64,000 bases of DNA, taken from an uncultured Lachnospiraceae bacterium. Its GTDB lineage: Bacteria > Bacillota > Clostridia > Lachnospirales > Lachnospiraceae. The translations under genes were made by a program, and so were the position numbers. The stretch is taken from NCBI GenBank assembly GCA_902789555.1, contig CADAOF010000012.1:1-64000 (forward strand). Reading direction: 5' to 3'. The first letter of the stretch is position 1, and the number at the start of each line of letters is the position of its first letter. A model generated the notes under the pieces. That model did not search any database, had not been told where the DNA came from, and saw only the letters and a list, made by a program, of their open reading frames with translations. Positions 7,062 through 15,612 of this stretch are shown here, one piece after another.

Positions 7062-8399
7062 TCAGTCAAAGATCTGCCCGGGCAGTTTCAGCTTTTCCTT
7101 TGGCGGAAATGCCCTGTCGAATTCTTCCACGTCCGCGTCGGCGACGTAATATCCCTGCGGCGTCTGATACACGCCGGTGATCCCGTCCAGATATCCGGGG
7201 ATCAGTTCCCTGCAGAGGAAAAAGGAATCGTCCGCACCTTCCGGCAGATCGTGGTAGCGGATGCCGAAGTTCCGGGCATAGTCAAAGCCGCTGTGGCCGT
7301 AGAATCCGATATTGCCTTCAAACAGCACCGCGCCGAAGCCCATGGCTGCCGCCTTTTCCAGGGAGTAGTCCAGGATTTTCTTGCCGTAGCCTCTGCGCTT
7401 CAGCTCAGGGATGATGCCTATCGGTCCCATGGTCAGCACGGGCACCGTCCTGCCGTCGTCGGCACCTATCACCGTGCGCATGAACATGTTCTGGCCGATG
7501 AGGCGGCCGTCCTGCTCCATGACGAAGTCCAGTTCCCTGACGAAAGCCGGATCGTCCCGCAGCACGTGGATCACGTAGTGTTCGCTGCAGCCCGGGCGGT
7601 ACACGTTCCAGAATGACTCGCGGATGAGATTTTCCACTTCCCGCTCCTCTTCTTTCCTCTCCGGGCGGATGACGCAGCCGTTTTCCGCGTCACGCTTCTT
7701 CAGGTAAAACAGCCTTCTGGTCTCTGATTTTTCGCCTGGCCAGGCAAAATGCGTGAGCCTTTCAACGGAATACCAGGGTGAAAAGAGCTCCGCCCACTCG
7801 TCATCCGTCCGTGAGACGAGCCGGAGAACGCCGTCCATATAGAGCCGTCTGCCGTCCTTCAGTTCCAGGCCTCTTGCTTCTGCGGCATCCGGTGACAGAT
7901 AATAATTCAGCCCGATGATCACGCCGGCGTCCCGGGTCGTGATCTGCGCTGATTCACGGATGATCTCCAGGGCCGTTTCCTCGGGAACGACGTCCAGGAC
8001 GTTGGAGCAGATGAATCCGTCATACGTATTCTCCGGAATGCTGCCGAGCCACCGGCGGTCCGACCGGACGGCGTGCAGTTCCTGCCCCACGCCGTAAAGA
8101 AAAGCCCTTCGCTCTGCTGCCTGGACAGCCCCCGGAGCTGCGTCGGCCGCCGTCACGTCGGGACATCCGCTTTTTGCCGCAATGATCCCGGCCCACGCAT
8201 CGCCGCAGCCGTAGTCCAGCACTTTTTTCCTCTGCCCCAGTGAGCAGGCTGCTGCAAACAGCTTCTCAGAGGGGGCCAGGTCTTTCCAGCTCTCCGGCTC
8301 CGTTTCCTGCCCTTCCGCCGAAACTTCCTCCGACTGGGAAAAAACCTTATCCCAAAAATCGACCAGGGTCTGATCGTCCCGCTCGGTATCGCTGATCAT
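7062..8399 (-). CDS. Class I SAM methyltransferase fused to a GNAT acetyltransferase
   Basis: A 445-residue two-domain protein. The N-terminal half (about residues 40-215) is a class I methyltransferase: motif I is KVLDYGCGDAWAGIIAAKSG, followed by DVTAADAAPGAVQAA and FICSNVLDVVPEE. The C-terminal half (about 245-445) is a GNAT acetyltransferase with VLTMGPIGIIPELKRRGYGKKILDYS (acetyl-CoA loop) and FEGNIGFYGHSGFD. A protein able to methylate and acetylate could modify one substrate twice, but neither substrate is known. It is the first gene of the minus-strand operon with the Fe-S flavoprotein and a GNAT, about 88 bases downstream of a consensus promoter with a TetR-type operator. The frame is continuous, so the fusion is not an annotation artefact. 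Confidence 0.87.
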   Translation of the reverse strand: MISDTERDDQTLVDFWDKVFSQSEEVSAEGQETEPESWKDLAPSEKLFAAACSLGQRKKVLDYGCGDAWAGIIAAKSGCPDVTAADAAPGAVQAAERRAFLYGVGQELHAVRSDRRWLGSIPENTYDGFICSNVLDVVPEETALEIIRESAQITTRDAGVIIGLNYYLSPDAAEARGLELKDGRRLYMDGVLRLVSRTDDEWAELFSPWYSVERLTHFAWPGEKSETRRLFYLKKRDAENGCVIRPERKEEEREVENLIRESFWNVYRPGCSEHYVIHVLRDDPAFVRELDFVMEQDGRLIGQNMFMRTVIGADDGRTVPVLTMGPIGIIPELKRRGYGKKILDYSLEKAAAMGFGAVLFEGNIGFYGHSGFDYARNFGIRYHDLPEGADDSFFLCRELIPGYLDGITGVYQTPQGYYVADADVEEFDRAFPPKEKLKLPGQIFD

Positions 8400-8486: not shown

Positions 8487-8515
8487 ATTATAGTGACCGT
8501 TCGGTCACCTGTCAA
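8487..8515 (-). promoter_or_regulatory. Promoter of the methyltransferase operon with GTGA-N8-TCAC operator
   Basis: On the minus strand, TTGACA (8515-8510), a 17-bp spacer and TATAAT (8492-8487) make a perfect sigma-A promoter for the operon starting at 8399. The spacer consists almost entirely of a palindrome GTGACCG-N2-CGGTCAC (8493-8508), a typical TetR-family site. It shares the GTGA-N8-TCAC form with the two sites in front of tetR at 2.8 kb. Confidence 0.85.
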
Positions 8516-8550: not shown

Positions 8551-8582
8551 TTGACAAAATCGAACGTTTGTTCTAATATAAT
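8551..8582 (+). promoter_or_regulatory. SOS promoter with LexA box for the radical SAM / macrodomain / sirtuin operon
   Basis: TTGACA at 8551-8556 and TAATAT at 8574-8579 (17-bp spacer; an overlapping TATAAT is at 8577-8582) form a plus-strand promoter. The spacer contains CGAACGTTTGTTCT (8561-8574), which has the GAAC-N4-GTTC core of the Firmicute LexA/DinR box. A LexA dimer there would occlude the promoter, so the downstream operon is probably induced by DNA damage. Confidence 0.8.
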
Positions 8583-8644
8583 AATGAAAGGACGCTGTCA
8601 CTCCTCCGCGGCAGACCCTCAAACGACGACAGGAAACGCGCACG

Positions 8645-9523
8645 ATGCACTTTGTACAGGCAAAAGGAATACTGACCGGAAGCGGCGGCCGCTGCGGGAT
8701 GAATATTTACCGCGGATGCAGCCACGGCTGCATTTACTGTGACAGCCGGAGCCGCTGCTATCAGTTCACGCATCCCTTCGAAGACATCGAAGTGAAGCAG
8801 AATGCGCCGGAACTGCTGGAAAAGGCGCTGCGCGGCAAAAGAAAAAAGTGCATGATCGGGACCGGGGCGATGTCTGACCCGTACATGCACTGCGAAGAGC
8901 AGCTGCGGCTCACGCGAAGGTGCCTGGAGATCATCCGGAATTACGGCTTCGGCGCGGCCGTCCAGACCAAGTCGGACCGCATCCTGCAGGACATCGATCT
9001 TCTGGATGAGATCAACCGCAGCGCGAAATGCGTGGTGCAGATGACGCTGACGACCTGGGACGACACGCTCTGCGGCATTCTGGAGCCAAACGTCTGCCGT
9101 ACGAAGCGCCGGATCGAAGTCCTTGAGGAGATGCAGAAACGCGGCATCCCGACCGTCGTCTGGCTCACGCCGATCCTGCCGTTCATCAACGACACCGAAG
9201 AAAACGTCACAGCCATCCTGAACGAATGCGTCCGCGTGGGTGTTAAGGGCGTCATCGATTTCGGAATGGGGCTGACCCTCCGTGACGGCGACCGGGAGTA
9301 TTTTTACGCAGCGCTGGATAAGCACTTTCCGGGGATGAAGGAGCGCTACGTCCGCCGCTACGGCAATGCCTACGTTCTGCCGAGCCCGAATGCCGAGAAG
9401 CTGACGGAGATCTTCCGGAGGATCTGCGGGGAAAACGGCATCCTGTCAACACCGGAGGCGTGCTTTCGCTACCTGAACGAACTGCCGGAAAAATATCCGC
9501 AGATGAGTTTGTTTGATCCGTAA
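8645..9523 (+). CDS. SPL-family radical SAM protein
   Basis: A 292-residue radical SAM enzyme. MNIYRGCSHGCIYCDSRSRCYQF carries the C-x3-C-x2-C motif (Cys25, 29, 32) that binds the 4Fe-4S cluster used to cleave S-adenosylmethionine. The overall layout matches proteins annotated as SPL-family, related to spore photoproduct lyase, which reverses thymine dimer damage by radical chemistry. Many family members are not true SplB, and the substrate here is unknown. AGGAAA precedes the ATG. It is the first gene after a LexA-boxed promoter, with DUF1848 15 bp downstream, which favours a role in the DNA-damage response. It is not a complete match to classical SplB by eye. Confidence 0.85.
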   Translation: MHFVQAKGILTGSGGRCGMNIYRGCSHGCIYCDSRSRCYQFTHPFEDIEVKQNAPELLEKALRGKRKKCMIGTGAMSDPYMHCEEQLRLTRRCLEIIRNYGFGAAVQTKSDRILQDIDLLDEINRSAKCVVQMTLTTWDDTLCGILEPNVCRTKRRIEVLEEMQKRGIPTVVWLTPILPFINDTEENVTAILNECVRVGVKGVIDFGMGLTLRDGDREYFYAALDKHFPGMKERYVRRYGNAYVLPSPNAEKLTEIFRRICGENGILSTPEACFRYLNELPEKYPQMSLFDP

Positions 9524-9538
9524 GGAAAGTGAGACCGC

Positions 9539-10474
9539 ATGATCATCAATACCGGACAGAGAACGGATATCCCGGCCTTCTATGCCGAATGGTTTGCAAA
9601 CCGGCTGAAAGAAGGCTTTGTCTGCGTGCGCAATCCCTACGATCCGCATCAGGTCAGCCGCTACCGCCTGGATCCGTCCGTCGTGGACGTGATCGGTTTC
9701 TGCACCAAGAATCCTGCCCCGATGTTCCCCTACATGGATCTTCTGAAGGATTACGGCCAGTACTGGTTCGTCACCATCACCCCCTACGGACGGGACATCG
9801 AGCCGAATGTCCCGGACAAGCACCGCCTGCTGGACGATTTCCGGAGGCTTTCGGATACGGTCGGCGTGAATGCCGTCGGCTGGCGGTATGACCCCATCTT
9901 TTTTTCGGAGCGCTACACGGCAGAGTACCATCTCCGCGCCTTTGAACGGATCGCAGCGGCATTAGAGAGGTTTACAGAGACCTCCGTCATCAGTTTCATC
10001 GACCTCTACCCGAAGGTCCGGCGGAACTTTCCGGAAGCCCGGGAAGTCGCAAAAGACGAACGCCTGTCGCTCGGCAAAGAACTGATCGGCATCGCTGCTG
10101 CGCACGGGATGACGGTAAAGCCCTGTGCGGAAGGTGACGAGCTTGCTGCCTTCGGCGCCGACTGCGGCGGATGCATGCGGCTCAGCGATTATGAAAAAGC
10201 CATCGGCCGGCGCCTGAACGCCCCGAAAAGAAAGGGCGCGCGGGCAGAATGCGCCTGCTATCTTGCCTGCGACATCGGCGCATACAATACCTGCCGGCAC
10301 CTGTGCCGCTATTGCTACGCCAACGCGGAGCCGGCCGCCGTGATGGCGCAGAGCCGGCTGCACGACCCTGCTTCGCCCTTCCTCATCGGGACTTACCGGG
10401 AAGGCGACGTCATCCATGACGTCCCGCAGAAATCGTGGATCGACGGGCAGATGAGCCTGGATCTGGAGGCGTAA
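9539..10474 (+). CDS. DUF1848 protein with C-terminal cysteine cluster
   Basis: A 311-residue DUF1848 protein. The N-terminal body ([42 protein letters not shown], read in parts) is the family's conserved core. The C-terminus has six cysteines, at 238, 240, 244, 252, 256 and 259. The last three form C-x3-C-x2-C ([12 protein letters not shown]), identical in spacing to a radical SAM cluster motif but at the wrong end of the protein. Function is unknown in the family. Such proteins are frequently found beside SPL-type radical SAM enzymes, as here (15 bp apart), suggesting that the two act together. It lies in the LexA-controlled operon. Confidence 0.85.
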
Positions 10475-10520
10475 GAAGCGCCGGCACCGGAGCAGAAAAA
10501 CGGAAAGGAGGGCGTTCGGC

Positions 10521-11373
10521 ATGAACCAGCAGGAACGTCTTGATTATCTCGTGGAACAGTTTAAGGAAGACTCGGTGCAGTACCGGGATCTGGAAACGCC
10601 GGCGGATGCCGAAGGAAAGAGGCGCTTTCTGCGCTCCCTCATGAACGTCCGGATGTCGAAAGCCCTGCCGCAGCGGGTCCTGGAAATTCAGGACGAGTAT
10701 CTGCGGGAACGCAACCGCGAAAAAGGGATCATAAAACTCAGCGACGTGCCGACGCTCGCCGATACGGGCAGCCGCCGTCCCTTTGCGGACAGGCTTTCCG
10801 TCTGGCAGGGTGATATCACAAGGCTGGCCGTAGACGCTATTGTGAACGCAGCCAATTCACAGATGCTGGGCTGCTTCGTTCCGATGCATACCTGCATAGA
10901 CAACTGCATTCACACCTTTGCCGGAGTCCAGCTTCGAGCAGAATGCAGCTGCCGGAGTCCAGCTTCGAGCAGAATGCAGCAGACAGATGAATCAGCTGCG
11001 AATCAAATACGGCAAAGATTATGAGCAGCCAACAGCCGTCCCGATGCTGACGGATGGCTATAATCTTCCGGCGAAGCATGTGATCCACATCGTCGGACCA
11101 ATCGTTTCCGGAAGGCTTACCGGGGCTCTCGAGGAGGAGCTCGCCGCCTGCTACCGGAACACGCTGGACCTCTGCGCGGCGAACGGCATCCGCTCCGTCG
11201 CCTTCTGCTGCATCTCCACGGGCGTCTTCCGCTTTCCGAACAAGCGGGCAGCAGAGATCGCGGTCCGAACCGTAACGGACTGGCTTACCGCTCATCCGGA
11301 CGGAACGGACCGGGTGATCTTAAACGTTTTCAAGGATGAGGACAGGGAATATTATGAGAAAGAATTATACTGA
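10521..11373 (+). pseudogene. Zinc-dependent macrodomain ADP-ribosyl hydrolase, frameshifted by a 31-bp duplication
   Basis: Without the extra 31-bp unit at 10919-10980 the gene would encode a 273-residue protein-ADP-ribose hydrolase of the zinc-macrodomain type. The 5' part (from 10521, after an excellent AAAGGAGG) has [34 protein letters not shown], with the ADP-ribose-binding NAAN and the Cys/His/Cys zinc residues of GCFxPxHxCIDN. The 3' part has YNLPAKHVIHIVGPIV and SVAFCCISTGVFRFPNKRAAEIA. The two copies of the duplication shift the reading frame by one, so the protein as read ends at 11024. Both halves join exactly at the shared [10 protein letters not shown]. The ORF from 10918 is only the shifted remainder. 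The sirtuin start lies inside the 3' end. Confidence 0.85.
10919..10980 (+). repeat. Exact 31-bp tandem duplication inside the macrodomain gene
   Basis: Bases 10919-10949 and 10950-10980 are identical 31-bp units. Each contains GGAGTCCAGCTTCGAGCAG. Because 31 is not a multiple of three, the second unit shifts the frame. Loss of one unit by slippage or recombination would restore a complete gene. Confidence 0.95.
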
Positions 11374-12274
11374 AACCGAACGGCTGAAAAAAGAACTTGA
11401 AACCGCCGACGCCGTCGTGATCGGTGCAGGCGCCGGGCTGTCCACTTCCGCCGGCTTTATCTACACCGGAGAGCGCTTCGAGAAATATTTCTCAGATTTC
11501 ATCGGCAAATATCAATATCACATCAAAGACATGTACTCCGGCGGCTTTTACGCCATGCAGCGGCCGGCTGAGGAGCTTTGGGCTTACTGGAGCCGGTATA
11601 TCTACATCAACCGCTATATGGATCCGCCGAAACCGGTCTACAGGGATCTGTTTGAACTTGTCAGGAATAAGGACTACTTTGTCCTGACGACCAATGTGGA
11701 TCATTGCTTCCAGAAGGCCGGATTCGATAAGCACAGGCTCTTCTATACGCAGGGTGATTACGGCCTCTGGCAGTGCAGCAAGCCCTGTCATGACAAGACC
11801 TATGACAATGAAGAGACCGTGCGCAAGATGGTCCTTGCCCAGGGATTTGCCATCGCGGAGGACGGCACGCTGGAGGTTCCGGAAGGTGCAGCCCTCAAAA
11901 TGACGGTTCCCACTGAGCTCGTTCCGCACTGCCCGGTCTGCGGTGAGCCGATGAGCATGAACCTCCGTGCAGACGATACGTTCGTGGAAGACGAAGGCTG
12001 GCATATGGCGTCTGCGGCCTACGCTGATTTTCTCAGGCGGCATGAAGGGCTGCACGTCCTCTTTCTGGAGATCGGCGTCGGGATGAACACCCCGGTGATC
12101 ATCAAATATCCCTTCTGGCAGATGACCGCCGGCAATCCCCGGGCTGTCTATGCCTGCCTGAATTACGACGGCGCTTACTGCCCGGCGCAGATCGCAGAGC
12201 GCTCGATCTGCATCGGCGGTGACAGCAGGGAAGTGATCCGCCGGCTCCTGCAGGACATAAAGAAACTTGAATGA
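11354..12274 (+). CDS. Class M sirtuin (SirTM-like NAD-dependent enzyme)
   Basis: A 306-residue SIR2-family protein. VVIGAGAGLSTSAGF (residues 21-35) is the NAD-binding loop and TTNVDHCFQKAG (112-123) carries the catalytic Asn and Asp. Where classical deacetylases have the catalytic His, this protein reads YTQGDYGLWQCSKPC, with Gln133. That substitution is typical of the macrodomain-linked class M sirtuins, which act as protein ADP-ribosyltransferases (family knowledge). Zinc ligands are Cys141, 145, 193 and 196. The start at 11354 lies 20 bp inside the macrodomain gene, so translation is coupled. The pairing with a zinc macrodomain supports a writer-eraser pair for protein ADP-ribosylation. 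No GcvH-L or lipoate ligase partner gene is visible nearby. Confidence 0.88.
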   Translation: MRKNYTETERLKKELETADAVVIGAGAGLSTSAGFIYTGERFEKYFSDFIGKYQYHIKDMYSGGFYAMQRPAEELWAYWSRYIYINRYMDPPKPVYRDLFELVRNKDYFVLTTNVDHCFQKAGFDKHRLFYTQGDYGLWQCSKPCHDKTYDNEETVRKMVLAQGFAIAEDGTLEVPEGAALKMTVPTELVPHCPVCGEPMSMNLRADDTFVEDEGWHMASAAYADFLRRHEGLHVLFLEIGVGMNTPVIIKYPFWQMTAGNPRAVYACLNYDGAYCPAQIAERSICIGGDSREVIRRLLQDIKKLE

Positions 12275-13798: not shown

Positions 13799-14449
13799 AT
13801 GAAACAGAAAGCGTTTGCCGTCCTCGGGCTTGGCAGCTTCGGCATGGGCGCGGCGAATGAACTGATGGAAAGAGGTGCCGAAGTCCTGGTCGTCGACCGG
13901 AACGAGCGCCTGATCGAAGAAAACGCGAAACGCTTCACGCAGGCAGTCATCGCAGACCTGACGGATCCCGAAGCCATCGGGCAGCTCGGCCTCGGCAGCA
14001 TGGACGCCGTCATCGTCGACATGTCACAGGACCTGGAAGCAAGCATCATGTGCGTCATGGTCGCTAAGGAAAAGGGCGTCCACCGCGTCATTGCCAAGGC
14101 GGAAAACAAGAGAAAAAGCGATATTCTGAAAAAAGTCGGGGCCGACCAGATCGTCTTTCCCGAGCAGGAAAGCGGCACCCGCACGGCGTTTCAACTGATG
14201 TTCCCCGACATCCTGCGCTTCTTCGACCTTACGAGCGACCTGGTCATCGTGGAGATGCAGCCGCGCGAAGAATGGTGCGGCAGGACGCTTCTCGAACTGG
14301 AACTCCGGAAAAAGCACGGGATCAACGTCATTGCCTTCCGCAGGGGCGATAAGGTATACGACGTCCGCAGCGAGTCCGACATGATCCGAAGCGGCGAATC
14401 GATGCTGATTGTCATGACGAAAGATAATCTCGAAACGCTTGAGGCATGA
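13799..14449 (+). CDS. ktrA: Potassium uptake regulatory subunit, TrkA/KtrA family (RCK)
   Basis: A 216-residue cytoplasmic gating subunit. The RCK-N Rossmann domain starts FAVLGLGSFGMGAANELMERGAEVLVVDRNE, with the nucleotide-binding GLGSFG and an acidic residue ending beta-2. An RCK-C domain (about residues 135-216) ends GESMLIVMTKDNLETLEA and in this family binds regulatory ligands such as c-di-AMP. It forms a ring that gates the KtrB pore. It is transcribed with ktrB. GAAAGGAATGACGA before the ATG supplies the ribosome binding site. Confidence 0.93.
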   Translation: MKQKAFAVLGLGSFGMGAANELMERGAEVLVVDRNERLIEENAKRFTQAVIADLTDPEAIGQLGLGSMDAVIVDMSQDLEASIMCVMVAKEKGVHRVIAKAENKRKSDILKKVGADQIVFPEQESGTRTAFQLMFPDILRFFDLTSDLVIVEMQPREEWCGRTLLELELRKKHGINVIAFRRGDKVYDVRSESDMIRSGESMLIVMTKDNLETLEA

Positions 14450-14485
14450 GCTGAACGGCTTCCGCGCTGACACGTAAAGAAAGGC

Positions 14486-14540
14486 TTGATTTTCTTCTCC
14501 GGGGCAGTTATGATATCTTAGTGGTTAGTTGATGCTAACC
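14486..14540 (+). promoter_or_regulatory. Promoter with DtxR/MntR-like operator before the HMA-ZIP operon
   Basis: TTGATT (14486-14491), 17 bp, TATGAT (14509-14514) form a promoter. Just downstream, GGTTAG (14523-14528)-N6-CTAACC (14535-14540) is a perfect inverted repeat containing the TTAG-N6-CTAA core of DtxR-family metal-repressor boxes. A metal-bound repressor there would block transcript initiation, tying the HMA and ZIP genes to metal status. Confidence 0.65.
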
Positions 14541-14572
14541 GTAAGAAAGCAAAACCCCCGGAGGATGAAACC

Positions 14573-14827
14573 ATGGTCAGAACGGTTCTGAAAATAGACG
14601 GCATGATGTGCGGGATGTGCGAAGCCCATATCTGCGATACGATCCGGAAGGCGGTGCCTTCCGCAAAGAAAGTCTCGGCTTCCCGCAGCAAAAAAGAGGC
14701 TTCGTTCCTTACGGAAGAAGCTGTGGATGCGAATGCGCTGAAGGCTGCGGTCGACGCGACCGGCTATGAATGTCTCGGCATCGAATCGGCGCCTTACGAA
14801 AAGAAAGGGTTGTTCGGAAGGAAATGA
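14573..14827 (+). CDS. HMA-domain heavy-metal-binding protein (chaperone-like)
   Basis: An 84-residue single heavy-metal-associated domain. KIDGMMCGMCEAHICDTIRK contains the metal-binding C-x2-C loop (Cys17 and Cys20 by count) of copper-chaperone-type proteins, in a ferredoxin-like beta-alpha-beta fold. It has a short basic tail (EKKGLFGRK). GGAGG lies shortly before the start. Its stop overlaps the ZIP transporter start by four bases (ATGA), so the two are co-translated. That pairing suggests the domain hands a divalent metal to or from the transporter, an inference. The metal is not determined by the sequence. Confidence 0.87.
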   Translation: MVRTVLKIDGMMCGMCEAHICDTIRKAVPSAKKVSASRSKKEASFLTEEAVDANALKAAVDATGYECLGIESAPYEKKGLFGRK

Positions 14828-15612
14828 AAACGGTCATCTGGGGACTGCTGATCCCCTTCATCGGCACCGCAGCCGGCGCTGCCTGCGTGTTCTTTTTGAA
14901 GAAGGATCTTCAGGCAGGCGTGCAGCGCGCCCTGACCGGTTTTGCGGCAGGCGTCATGGTGGCGGCATCCATCTGGAGCCTCATCGTTCCGGCGATCGAC
15001 CAGTCGGCGGACAAGGGCCGTTTAGCCTTCCTGCCGGCCTTCATCGGCTTCTGGCTGGGCATTCTCTTCCTCCTGCTGCTGGACCACGTCATCCCGCATC
15101 TGCACCGGCGCATCGATCAGGCCGACCAGACCGAAGGCCCGAAAGCGAAACTGGACCGGACGGTCATGATGGTCCTTGCCGTCACGCTCCACAACATCCC
15201 CGAGGGGATGGCCGTCGGCGTGGTCTACGCCGGACTCCTCGCCGGTACGGCCAACATTACGGCAGGCGCGGCGCTTGCCCTGGCCCTCGGCATTGCGATC
15301 CAGAACTTCCCGGAAGGCGCGATCATTTCCATGCCGCTCTTCGCGGAGGGAAAAAACAAGAGGAAAGCCTTCCGGCTGGGCGTGCTGTCAGGCGCCGTGG
15401 AGCCGCTTTTCGGCGGTCTGACGGTGCTGATCGCCGGTCTCGTGATCCCCGCGATGCCCTATCTTCTCTCTTTCGCGGCCGGCGCCATGCTCTACGTGGT
15501 CGTAGAGGAACTGATCCCGGAAATGTCGGCGGGCGAGCACTCCAACATCGGCGTCGTGTTCTTTGCCGTCGGCTTCAGCCTGATGATGGCGCTTGACGTG
15601 GCGCTGGGATAG
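14824..15612 (+). CDS. ZIP family metal transporter
   Basis: A 262-residue membrane protein with about eight segments. The family metal-site helices are VTLHNIPEGMAVGV (HNIPEG) and AIQNFPEGAIISMPL (QNFPEG), with the later SGAVEPLFGGLT and VVVEELIPE. A charged loop (HRRIDQADQTEGPKAKLDR) separates the first helices from the core. ZIP proteins carry zinc, iron or manganese across the membrane, usually inward. The ATG at 14824 overlaps the HMA stop. The operon is preceded by a DtxR-like box and closed by the hairpin at 15645-15680. Confidence 0.92.
   Translation: MKTVIWGLLIPFIGTAAGAACVFFLKKDLQAGVQRALTGFAAGVMVAASIWSLIVPAIDQSADKGRLAFLPAFIGFWLGILFLLLLDHVIPHLHRRIDQADQTEGPKAKLDRTVMMVLAVTLHNIPEGMAVGVVYAGLLAGTANITAGAALALALGIAIQNFPEGAIISMPLFAEGKNKRKAFRLGVLSGAVEPLFGGLTVLIAGLVIPAMPYLLSFAAGAMLYVVVEELIPEMSAGEHSNIGVVFFAVGFSLMMALDVALG

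What the first reader, a model, noticed from the sequence alone, without database searches (positions are those of the whole stretch)
8551..12274. LexA-controlled operon joining an SPL radical SAM enzyme, DUF1848, a zinc macrodomain and a class M sirtuin
Seen: a LexA-type box (GAAC-N4-GTTC) inside a consensus promoter, then four tightly spaced genes. Known: class M sirtuins with zinc macrodomains form a reversible protein ADP-ribosylation pair, usually tied to a lipoylated GcvH-L carrier and an oxidative-stress role, and SPL-type radical SAM enzymes are linked to DNA lesion repair. Inference: here the ADP-ribosylation pair is recruited to the SOS response together with a radical SAM/DUF1848 module and without GcvH-L or LplA. 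That suggests a damage-inducible modification system with a different target, possibly DUF1848 or the SPL protein.
Basis: partly seen in the sequence, partly recalled or inferred. Interest (0 to 1): 0.82.

Follow-up and report, generated by a model that had tools for sequence, protein, structure and literature searches.

The report
DUF1848-linked ADP-ribosylation gene pair, partly broken
In a probable gut bacterium, a known kind of protein-tagging sirtuin and its (here broken) tag remover sit beside an uncharacterised protein, DUF1848, that recurs next to such sirtuins elsewhere and so is a candidate for their unknown target, while the DNA-damage switch in front is probably real but local.

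Summary
The four genes and an exact LexA-type box (8562-8573, inside a 17-bp promoter spacer) are present, but the macrodomain gene is not intact: a perfect 31-bp tandem duplication (10919-10980) shifts its frame. The sirtuin is a class M sirtuin (SirTM).

The box is probably functional: the genome encodes LexA, lexA has an exact box upstream, and similar promoters occur elsewhere in this genome and genus. It is local, though: no exact box at 27 fetched SPL-gene homologues or at 149 fetched SirTM loci. Among those loci SPL adjoins the module only here and in one sister genome, which has lost the macrodomain and half the sirtuin.

What recurs is DUF1848 beside the sirtuin or macrodomain gene: 5 of 69 and 10 of 80 fetched loci, with no hit elsewhere in their flanks, on either side of the pair and scattered over the sirtuin tree. 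DUF1848 ends in an invariant CX3CX2C motif, as radical SAM enzymes have. Targets of stand-alone SirTM/Zn-Macro pairs are unknown (PMC11490716), so DUF1848 is a concrete candidate. Evolved SOS recruitment is not supported; an ADP-ribosylation pair tied to a radical-SAM-like protein is plausible, unproven.

The parts
8551..8579 (+). Promoter (TTGACA - 17 - TAATAT) with exact LexA-type box GAACGTTTGTTC at 8562-8573
   Evidence: similar layout at own C23 and, 93% over 28 bp, at G159:C12 and G154:C9
8645..9523 (+). SPL-like radical SAM protein, 292 aa (PA0069/Rv2578c-like; invariant CX3CX2C at C25, C29, C32)
   Evidence: Pfam Radical_SAM 3.1e-13; NCBIfam rSAM_PA0069 1.8e-40, below its cut-off; alignment A3, 11 rows
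9539..10474 (+). DUF1848 protein, 311 aa; seven invariant Cys incl. C-terminal CX3CX2C (C252, C256, C259)
   Evidence: Pfam 1.4e-98; alignment A2, 18 rows; model pLDDT 90.3; PADLOC RTasDUF1848 5.7e-34
10521..11024 (+). N-terminal piece of broken zinc macrodomain; zinc loop GCFVPMHTC kept, out of frame after the duplication
10919..10980 (+). Perfect 2 x 31-bp tandem duplication that breaks the macrodomain frame
   Evidence: Tandem Repeats Finder, 100% match
10918..11373 (+). C-terminal piece of the broken macrodomain (separate frame, TTG start only)
11354..12274 (+). Class M sirtuin (SirTM), 306 aa, open; catalytic His position replaced by QG (FYTQGDYG)
   Evidence: Profile hit 5a3a 1.1e-81; alignment A1; motif as described in PMC4518038 (passage)

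Best explanation
The locus is a local composite. Its core is a recurrent association of DUF1848 with a SirTM and its Zn-Macro. Most likely (inferred) SirTM puts one ADP-ribose from NAD+ on the neighbouring DUF1848 protein, or on a carrier or substrate of it, and the Zn-Macro takes it off, so that a radical-SAM-like Fe-S enzyme is held off or released under redox stress, as proposed for GcvH-L in the extended operons. In this lineage the association came to lie behind an SPL-like radical SAM gene and (in this genome) a LexA-type promoter, and the reversible switch is now failing: the eraser is frameshifted here, and the eraser plus half of the writer are deleted in the sister genome, while SPL and DUF1848 stay under purifying selection. 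Shown: gene identities, the break, recurrence of DUF1848 beside SirTM, non-conservation of the box and of SPL linkage in the loci examined. Inferred: DUF1848 as target or partner, Fe-S/radical SAM chemistry, LexA control here.
For: DUF1848 lies within 600 bp and on the same strand of a sirtuin or macrodomain gene in 5 of 69 and 10 of 80 fetched SirTM loci, with 0 hits elsewhere in their 0.72 and 1.0 Mb. A macrodomain hit is directly next to the sirtuin in 11 of these 15, and 7 have near-full-length DUF1848, macrodomain and sirtuin together (L183, L232, L238, L244, L250, L252, L254). DUF1848 occurs before the pair (L198, L250, L252, L254) and after it (L183, L232, L238). On a quick 147-row sirtuin tree the label needs 14 changes for 16 rows, 8 forced by supported branches: repeated joining or loss. 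DUF1848 has 7 invariant Cys in 18 sequences with CX3CX2C at the C-terminus. Substitution ratios window against G159: SPL 0.08, DUF1848 0.10, sirtuin C-half 0.28, downstream TrkH 0.07. Break; G159 deletion. Targets of stand-alone pairs unknown: PMC11490716 (passages).
Against: Most fetched SirTM loci lack DUF1848 (64 of 69; 70 of 80), so it cannot be the general target, and PNPOx-ferredoxin-type genes are commoner neighbours (19 of 69 and 23 of 80). Of the 15 linked loci, 4 have no macrodomain directly at that sirtuin, L198's macrodomain and L197's DUF1848 are internally deleted, and L059's DUF1848 is split. On the DUF1848 tree (24 rows; unlinked rows are a biased sample of near relatives) linkage needs only 3 changes and no shuffle of 500 is as low, so few DUF1848 lineages are involved. 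DUF1848's relation to radical SAM rests on the Cys motif and a weak profile match to SPL (47% probability); Pfam shows no Radical_SAM hit and Foldseek's best matches are generic barrels with TM about 0.3. Here the eraser is broken, so the switch may not work in this strain.
Confidence: 0.4

Rival explanations
1. One reading: a damage-inducible ADP-ribosylation system, in which LexA controls all four genes as one SOS operon acting on DNA-lesion chemistry.
For: Exact box in the promoter spacer; LexA present with an exact box upstream of lexA and one 14 bp before an ORF that I recognise from memory as recA; a 28-bp stretch of the promoter recurs at 93% in G159 and G154, differing within the N4 of the box; tight gene spacing.
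Against: No exact box at 27 other fetched SPL homologues or 69 + 80 SirTM loci; SPL beside the module only here and in G159 among fetched loci; in G159 this upstream region was not found and a repeated sequence lies there; eraser broken; no spore photoproduct lyase model among the family hits of the SPL-like protein.
Confidence: 0.15
2. Pile-up: at this locus the genes are neighbours by accident in a decaying region and do no joint job; the DUF1848/Macro/SirTM association is real elsewhere but vestigial here.
For: Macrodomain frameshift; sister genome has a deletion through macrodomain and sirtuin; higher substitution ratio in the sirtuin C-half (0.28, only 14 changes); repeated sequence next to SPL in G159; internal deletions in L197 and L198 too.
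Against: The sirtuin itself is open here and SPL and DUF1848 are constrained; DUF1848 80% identical to this one stands in the same order with near-full-length macrodomain and sirtuin in L252 and L254.
Confidence: 0.3
3. Conflict system: SirTM is a toxin-like ADP-ribosyltransferase and the macrodomain its antidote (DarT/DarG-like logic), DUF1848 an accessory of defence, as in DRT systems.
For: PADLOC names DUF1848 as an accessory of defence reverse transcriptases, and in G004 a UG26-type RT overlaps a DUF1848 gene (L066); the association is patchy among genomes.
Against: Eraser broken while writer stays open here; no macrodomain hit in the flanks of 16 of 69 and 18 of 80 SirTM loci and only a short one in 6 and 7 more (contig ends explain some), which an antidote of a potent toxin should not allow; no PADLOC hit for sirtuin or macrodomain pieces; published SirTM is target-specific and tied to redox stress (PMC4518038 passages).
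Confidence: 0.07

Closest known systems
Stand-alone SirTM/Zn-Macro pair ('minimal operon'; PMC4518038, PMC11490716)
   Same: Class M sirtuin with QG in place of the catalytic His; adjacent macrodomain with C-x4-H-x-C zinc loop; no GcvH-L or LplA2; SirTMs are reported from Lachnospiraceae, probably this family
   Different: DUF1848 (and here an SPL-like radical SAM gene) in the same run of genes; macrodomain frame broken; LexA-type promoter
Extended SirTM operon of S. aureus and S. pyogenes (GcvH-L, LplA2, OYE, LLM)
   Same: Writer/eraser pair; redox-type neighbours are common beside the relatives' pairs (PNPOx-ferredoxin type, nitroreductase)
   Different: No GcvH-L or LplA2 here; the genome's single GcvH lies with apparent glycine cleavage genes
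DRT reverse transcriptases with DUF1848 (PADLOC RTasDUF1848)
   Same: DUF1848 as accessory next to another enzyme; the window protein matches the model at 5.7e-34
   Different: No reverse transcriptase among the genes here; partner is SirTM/Zn-Macro
PA0069/Rv2578c-type (SPL-like) radical SAM proteins
   Same: CX3CX2C, radical SAM domain
   Different: Below both family cut-offs; in the other fetched loci this gene is not beside SirTM

Membership tests
Class M sirtuin (SirTM) | Catalytic His replaced by QG | tested here: met
   FYTQGDYG in window, T-Q-G invariant in 14 aligned rows; TQG in 140 of 147 rows; definition from PMC4518038 passage
Class M sirtuin (SirTM) | Adjacent macrodomain gene | tested here: met
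   Macrodomain directly upstream, though frameshifted
Class M sirtuin (SirTM) | ADP-ribosyltransferase activity, no deacylation | not testable with these tools
   Biochemistry needed
Zinc macrodomain (Zn-Macro) | Short zinc loop Cys/His/Cys instead of the glycine-rich loop | tested here: met
   [11 protein letters not shown] before the break; N piece best PDB matches 8rsi, 5kiv, 8rsl
Zinc macrodomain (Zn-Macro) | Complete reading frame of about 260 aa | tested here: not met
   Two frames, 31-bp duplication; neither piece reaches the PRK04143 cut-off
Extended SirTM operon | GcvH-L and LplA2 in the operon | tested here: not met
   Not among the proteins scanned around the locus; single GcvH elsewhere
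LexA (SOS) regulon | GAAC-N4-GTTC operator in the promoter | tested here: met
LexA (SOS) regulon | Operator conserved in relatives of the same gene or operon | tested here: not met
   No exact box at 27 SPL homologues (one-mismatch sites at 4 of them) or at 69 + 80 SirTM loci
LexA (SOS) regulon | LexA binding and induction by damage | not testable with these tools
   Experiment needed
Radical SAM superfamily (for DUF1848) | CX3CX2C motif | tested here: met
   C252, C256, C259 invariant in 18 sequences, at the C-terminal end
Radical SAM superfamily (for DUF1848) | Homologous barrel by profile or fold | tested here: inconclusive
   hhalign to SPL 47% probability, E 0.0002; Foldseek generic barrels (50 best of 1552 rows seen); no Pfam Radical_SAM hit
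Spore photoproduct lyase proper (for the SPL gene) | Match to a curated SPL model | tested here: not met
   The four NCBIfam hits are rSAM_PA0069, rSAM_Rv2578c, its intein variant and rSAM_mob_pairB, all below cut-off

The most novel reading that the evidence does not exclude
Stand-alone SirTM/Zn-Macro pairs of gut Firmicutes are switches for radical-SAM-like, cysteine-cluster proteins: such a protein has repeatedly become the neighbour of the sirtuin (DUF1848; DUF5131 in 3 of 69 family/genus loci; an SPL-like protein beside tandem sirtuins in L174; SPL here), and ADP-ribosylation of that protein or of its substrate is the missing target of these pairs.
Probability: 0.25. Interest if true: 0.75.

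Novelty: new variant of a known kind. Interest (0 to 1): 0.45.

Why it matters
GcvH-L is the only published target of a SirTM, and PMC11490716 says that the targets of other SirTM/Zn-Macro systems are unknown (passages). A gene that repeatedly becomes the neighbour of such sirtuins gives a named protein to test, and a possible role for DUF1848, a name that no paper of the searched library contains. The genome and its sister also offer a natural experiment: writer without eraser, and neither.

Tried and rejected
Rejected: that the LexA box is mere chance (promoter layout and similar promoters speak for function) and that it is an ancestral feature of the genes (not found in the relatives examined). 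Rejected as likely: GcvH-L elsewhere in the genome as target (one GcvH, with apparent glycine cleavage genes). Rejected: another zinc macrodomain in the genome replacing the broken one; the only other Macro hit (C13:28954) lacks the Cys-His-Cys loop. Not supported: homology of DUF1848 and DUF5131 by profile (probability 0.1%; the DUF5131 alignment had 3 rows, one of them lacking the N-terminal Cys region). A solved relative of DUF1848 by sequence: none convincing (best E 0.098). Papers: DUF1848, 0; SirTM, macrodomain, radical SAM, two of three terms: 17 papers, 15 listed, none of these 15 with SirTM and radical SAM together; Rv2578c/SPL/LexA/SOS/radical SAM, four of five terms: 1 paper listed, not read; LexA + SOS regulon + Lachnospiraceae: 1 paper listed, not read; UG26 + reverse transcriptase: 3 listed, not read.

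Open: whether the 31-bp duplication is in all cells or an assembly fault; no reads were available.

I therefore lowered the main mechanism from 0.45 to 0.40, the toxin/antidote rival from 0.10 to 0.07 and the novel case from 0.28 to 0.25.
Full report
What is there. The promoter, box and genes are at the stated place. Gene 1 is a radical SAM protein of the PA0069/Rv2578c kind; 'SPL-type' is loosely right, but no spore photoproduct lyase model is among its hits. Gene 2 is DUF1848. Gene 3 is a zinc macrodomain whose frame is broken by a perfect 31-bp tandem duplication; its zinc loop lies before the break and its N piece best matches solved protein-ADP-ribose hydrolases of the zinc kind, 8rsi first. 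Gene 4 is an open class M sirtuin. The macrodomain's last frame and the sirtuin overlap by 20 bases.

The LexA box. Exact GAAC-N4-GTTC occurs at 46 places in the 2.26-Mb genome against 35 for the reversed pattern, so most copies are chance; I looked at the surroundings of a part of them, about 30. But LexA is encoded and has an exact box about 170 bp upstream, an ORF that I recognise from memory as RecA has one 14 bp from its start, and contig C23 has TTGACAATATC-GAACACATGTTC-TATTCT, the same layout as here, in front of a sigma-region-4 ORF and a VapE-like ORF, so probably a mobile element. A 28-bp stretch of the window promoter has 93% matches at G159:C12 and G154:C9, the differences falling in the N4 of the box. 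I therefore think that the site binds LexA. It does not look ancestral: there is no exact box within 300 bp of the start at 27 of 27 other fetched SPL homologues (for L051 only 123 bp exist; one-mismatch sites at 4 of the 27), nor within 300 bp upstream of the first recognised gene of the sirtuin's run at 69 of 69 and 80 of 80 fetched SirTM loci (about 0.4 expected by chance in the 80). Operon starts there are judged only from my query genes, so an unrecognised first gene could hide a box. The 27 SPL homologues are 20 chosen from the family listing, L059, 5 of the genus, and G159; the weak match in G155 (32%) was left out.

The sister genome. G159 has SPL and DUF1848 98% identical, then a deletion that joins the first codons of the macrodomain to the second half of the sirtuin. 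Its DNA upstream of SPL is a repeated sequence, 99 bp of it identical to a second place in G159, and 94% like a place on C10 of the window's genome over 72 bp. Apart from the 28-bp promoter match, the window's 286-bp upstream stretch was not found in the 8 genus genomes searched. Substitution ratios between the two genomes are 0.08 (SPL), 0.10 (DUF1848), 0.28 (sirtuin C-half, 14 changes only) and 0.07 (TrkH, downstream). So SPL and DUF1848 are kept while the ADP-ribosylation pair seems to decay.

What recurs. In 150 genomes of the family (probably Lachnospiraceae: same-family locus L128 shares its sirtuin and contig length with the Lachnospiraceae-titled record of L225) sirtuin matches at E 0.001, many of them weak, occur in 97, DUF1848 in 72, SPL in 88. 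In the genus, 4 of 16 genomes have a sirtuin match and 8 of 16 an SPL match. I fetched wide flanks for 69 sirtuin loci: 66 chosen from the family listing (fragments, weak matches and some full-length ones left out) and 3 from the genus search. SPL is beside the sirtuin or macrodomain in 0 of 69; DUF1848 in 5 (4 of 66 and 1 of 3), DUF5131 in 3 (1 of 66 and 2 of 3), a more distant SPL-like radical SAM gene in 1 (L174). No DUF1848 hit lies elsewhere in the 1.7 Mb of these loci.

How complete the linked loci are. Of the 15, 11 have a macrodomain hit directly at the sirtuin; L056 and L059 have none, L053's lies 4 kb off, L190's belongs to a second sirtuin. L198's macrodomain and L197's DUF1848 are internally deleted, L190's DUF1848 is cut by the contig end, L058 matches only part of DUF1848, L059's is split. 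Seven have all three near full length: L183, L232, L238, L244, L250, L252, L254. The window's order (DUF1848, macrodomain, sirtuin) is found complete in L250, L252 and L254, with DUF1848 57, 80 and 80% identical to the window's. Loss of the eraser is not special to the window: no macrodomain hit is seen in the flanks of 16 of 69 and 18 of 80 loci, and only a short one in 6 and 7 (contig ends explain some).

Independence. On a quick 147-row sirtuin tree (L166 and L260 dropped as short or with stops, duplicate L225 removed) the DUF1848 label needs 14 changes for 16 rows, 8 of them forced by supported branches, close to shuffled labels (mean 15.4; 65 of 500 as low). On the DUF1848 tree of 24 rows it needs 3 changes and is clustered (0 of 500 shuffles as low), but the unlinked rows there were only near relatives of the window's protein. 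My reading: certain DUF1848 lineages have been joined to different sirtuins several times, before or after the pair; repeated loss is not excluded.

DUF1848. Seven cysteines are invariant in 18 sequences, with CX3CX2C at the C-terminal end. The model is confident (pLDDT 90.3) but Foldseek's best matches are generic barrels. A profile match to SPL is weak. PADLOC lists DUF1848 as an accessory of defence reverse transcriptases, and G004 shows a UG26-type RT overlapping a DUF1848 gene. I infer a radical-SAM-like Fe-S protein with the motif at the other end of the chain; this is not shown.

Known ground. PMC4518038 (passages) describes SirTMs, their QG motif, stand-alone pairs, and their presence in Lachnospiraceae. 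PMC11490716 (abstract, outline and passages) shows that a minimal-operon Zn-Macro does not act on GcvH-L and states that targets of such systems are unknown. PMC4234289 (passages) gives GAACN4GTTC as the B. subtilis SOS box. No paper of the library mentions DUF1848.

Verdict. SOS control, if real, is a local feature of this genome; the DUF1848 link is the part worth following.

Noticed in passing
L066:5806-7927: UG26-type reverse transcriptase gene overlapping a DUF1848 gene in same-family genome G004: an association that PADLOC already names.
   Followed up: partly
L052:7804-9743, L055:1832-3789, L171:4959-6792: DUF5131 (PF07505 for the L055 protein) directly downstream of a sirtuin gene; two of the three are in the window's genus. 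N-terminal cluster GCKKCSEGCQNCY in L055, GCKKISEGCDHCY in L171; the L052 frame as called lacks that part.
   Followed up: partly
L174, L176-L180: Tandem pairs or triplets of divergent sirtuins (about 31-39% identical to the window's over full length), without a zinc macrodomain beside the tandem copies; in L174 directly after an SPL-like radical SAM gene.
   Followed up: no
L056:4057-6380, L242, L251, L256, L258: Radical SAM/SPASM-type gene with a PNPOx-ferredoxin protein (and, in L056, a nitroreductase-like ORF) upstream of SirTM genes; of the families queried, PNPOx-type is the commonest neighbour on the same strand.
   Followed up: partly
window 8487-8515 (minus strand): Divergent gene 7062-8399 (methyltransferase + GNAT domains) has a 12-of-12 TTGACA-17-TATAAT promoter whose spacer holds the palindrome GTGACCG-AA-CGGTCAC, which resembles a TetR-type operator (from memory).
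   Followed up: no
L105:158-2345 (own genome C23): LexA-box promoter before a sigma-region-4 ORF and a VapE-like ORF: probable SOS-controlled mobile element.
   Followed up: partly
L266 (own genome C13:28954-29292): Macrodomain protein with a C-terminal extension of over 200 aa and no zinc loop.
   Followed up: no
L059:6690-7609 and 14119-14998: In G072 both the DUF1848 gene next to the sirtuin and an SPL gene about 5 kb away are split into two frames.
   Followed up: no
L197:2382-2540, L198:7723-7984: Internally deleted DUF1848 (L197) and internally deleted macrodomain (L198) beside intact-looking partners: the association seems to lose parts repeatedly.
   Followed up: partly
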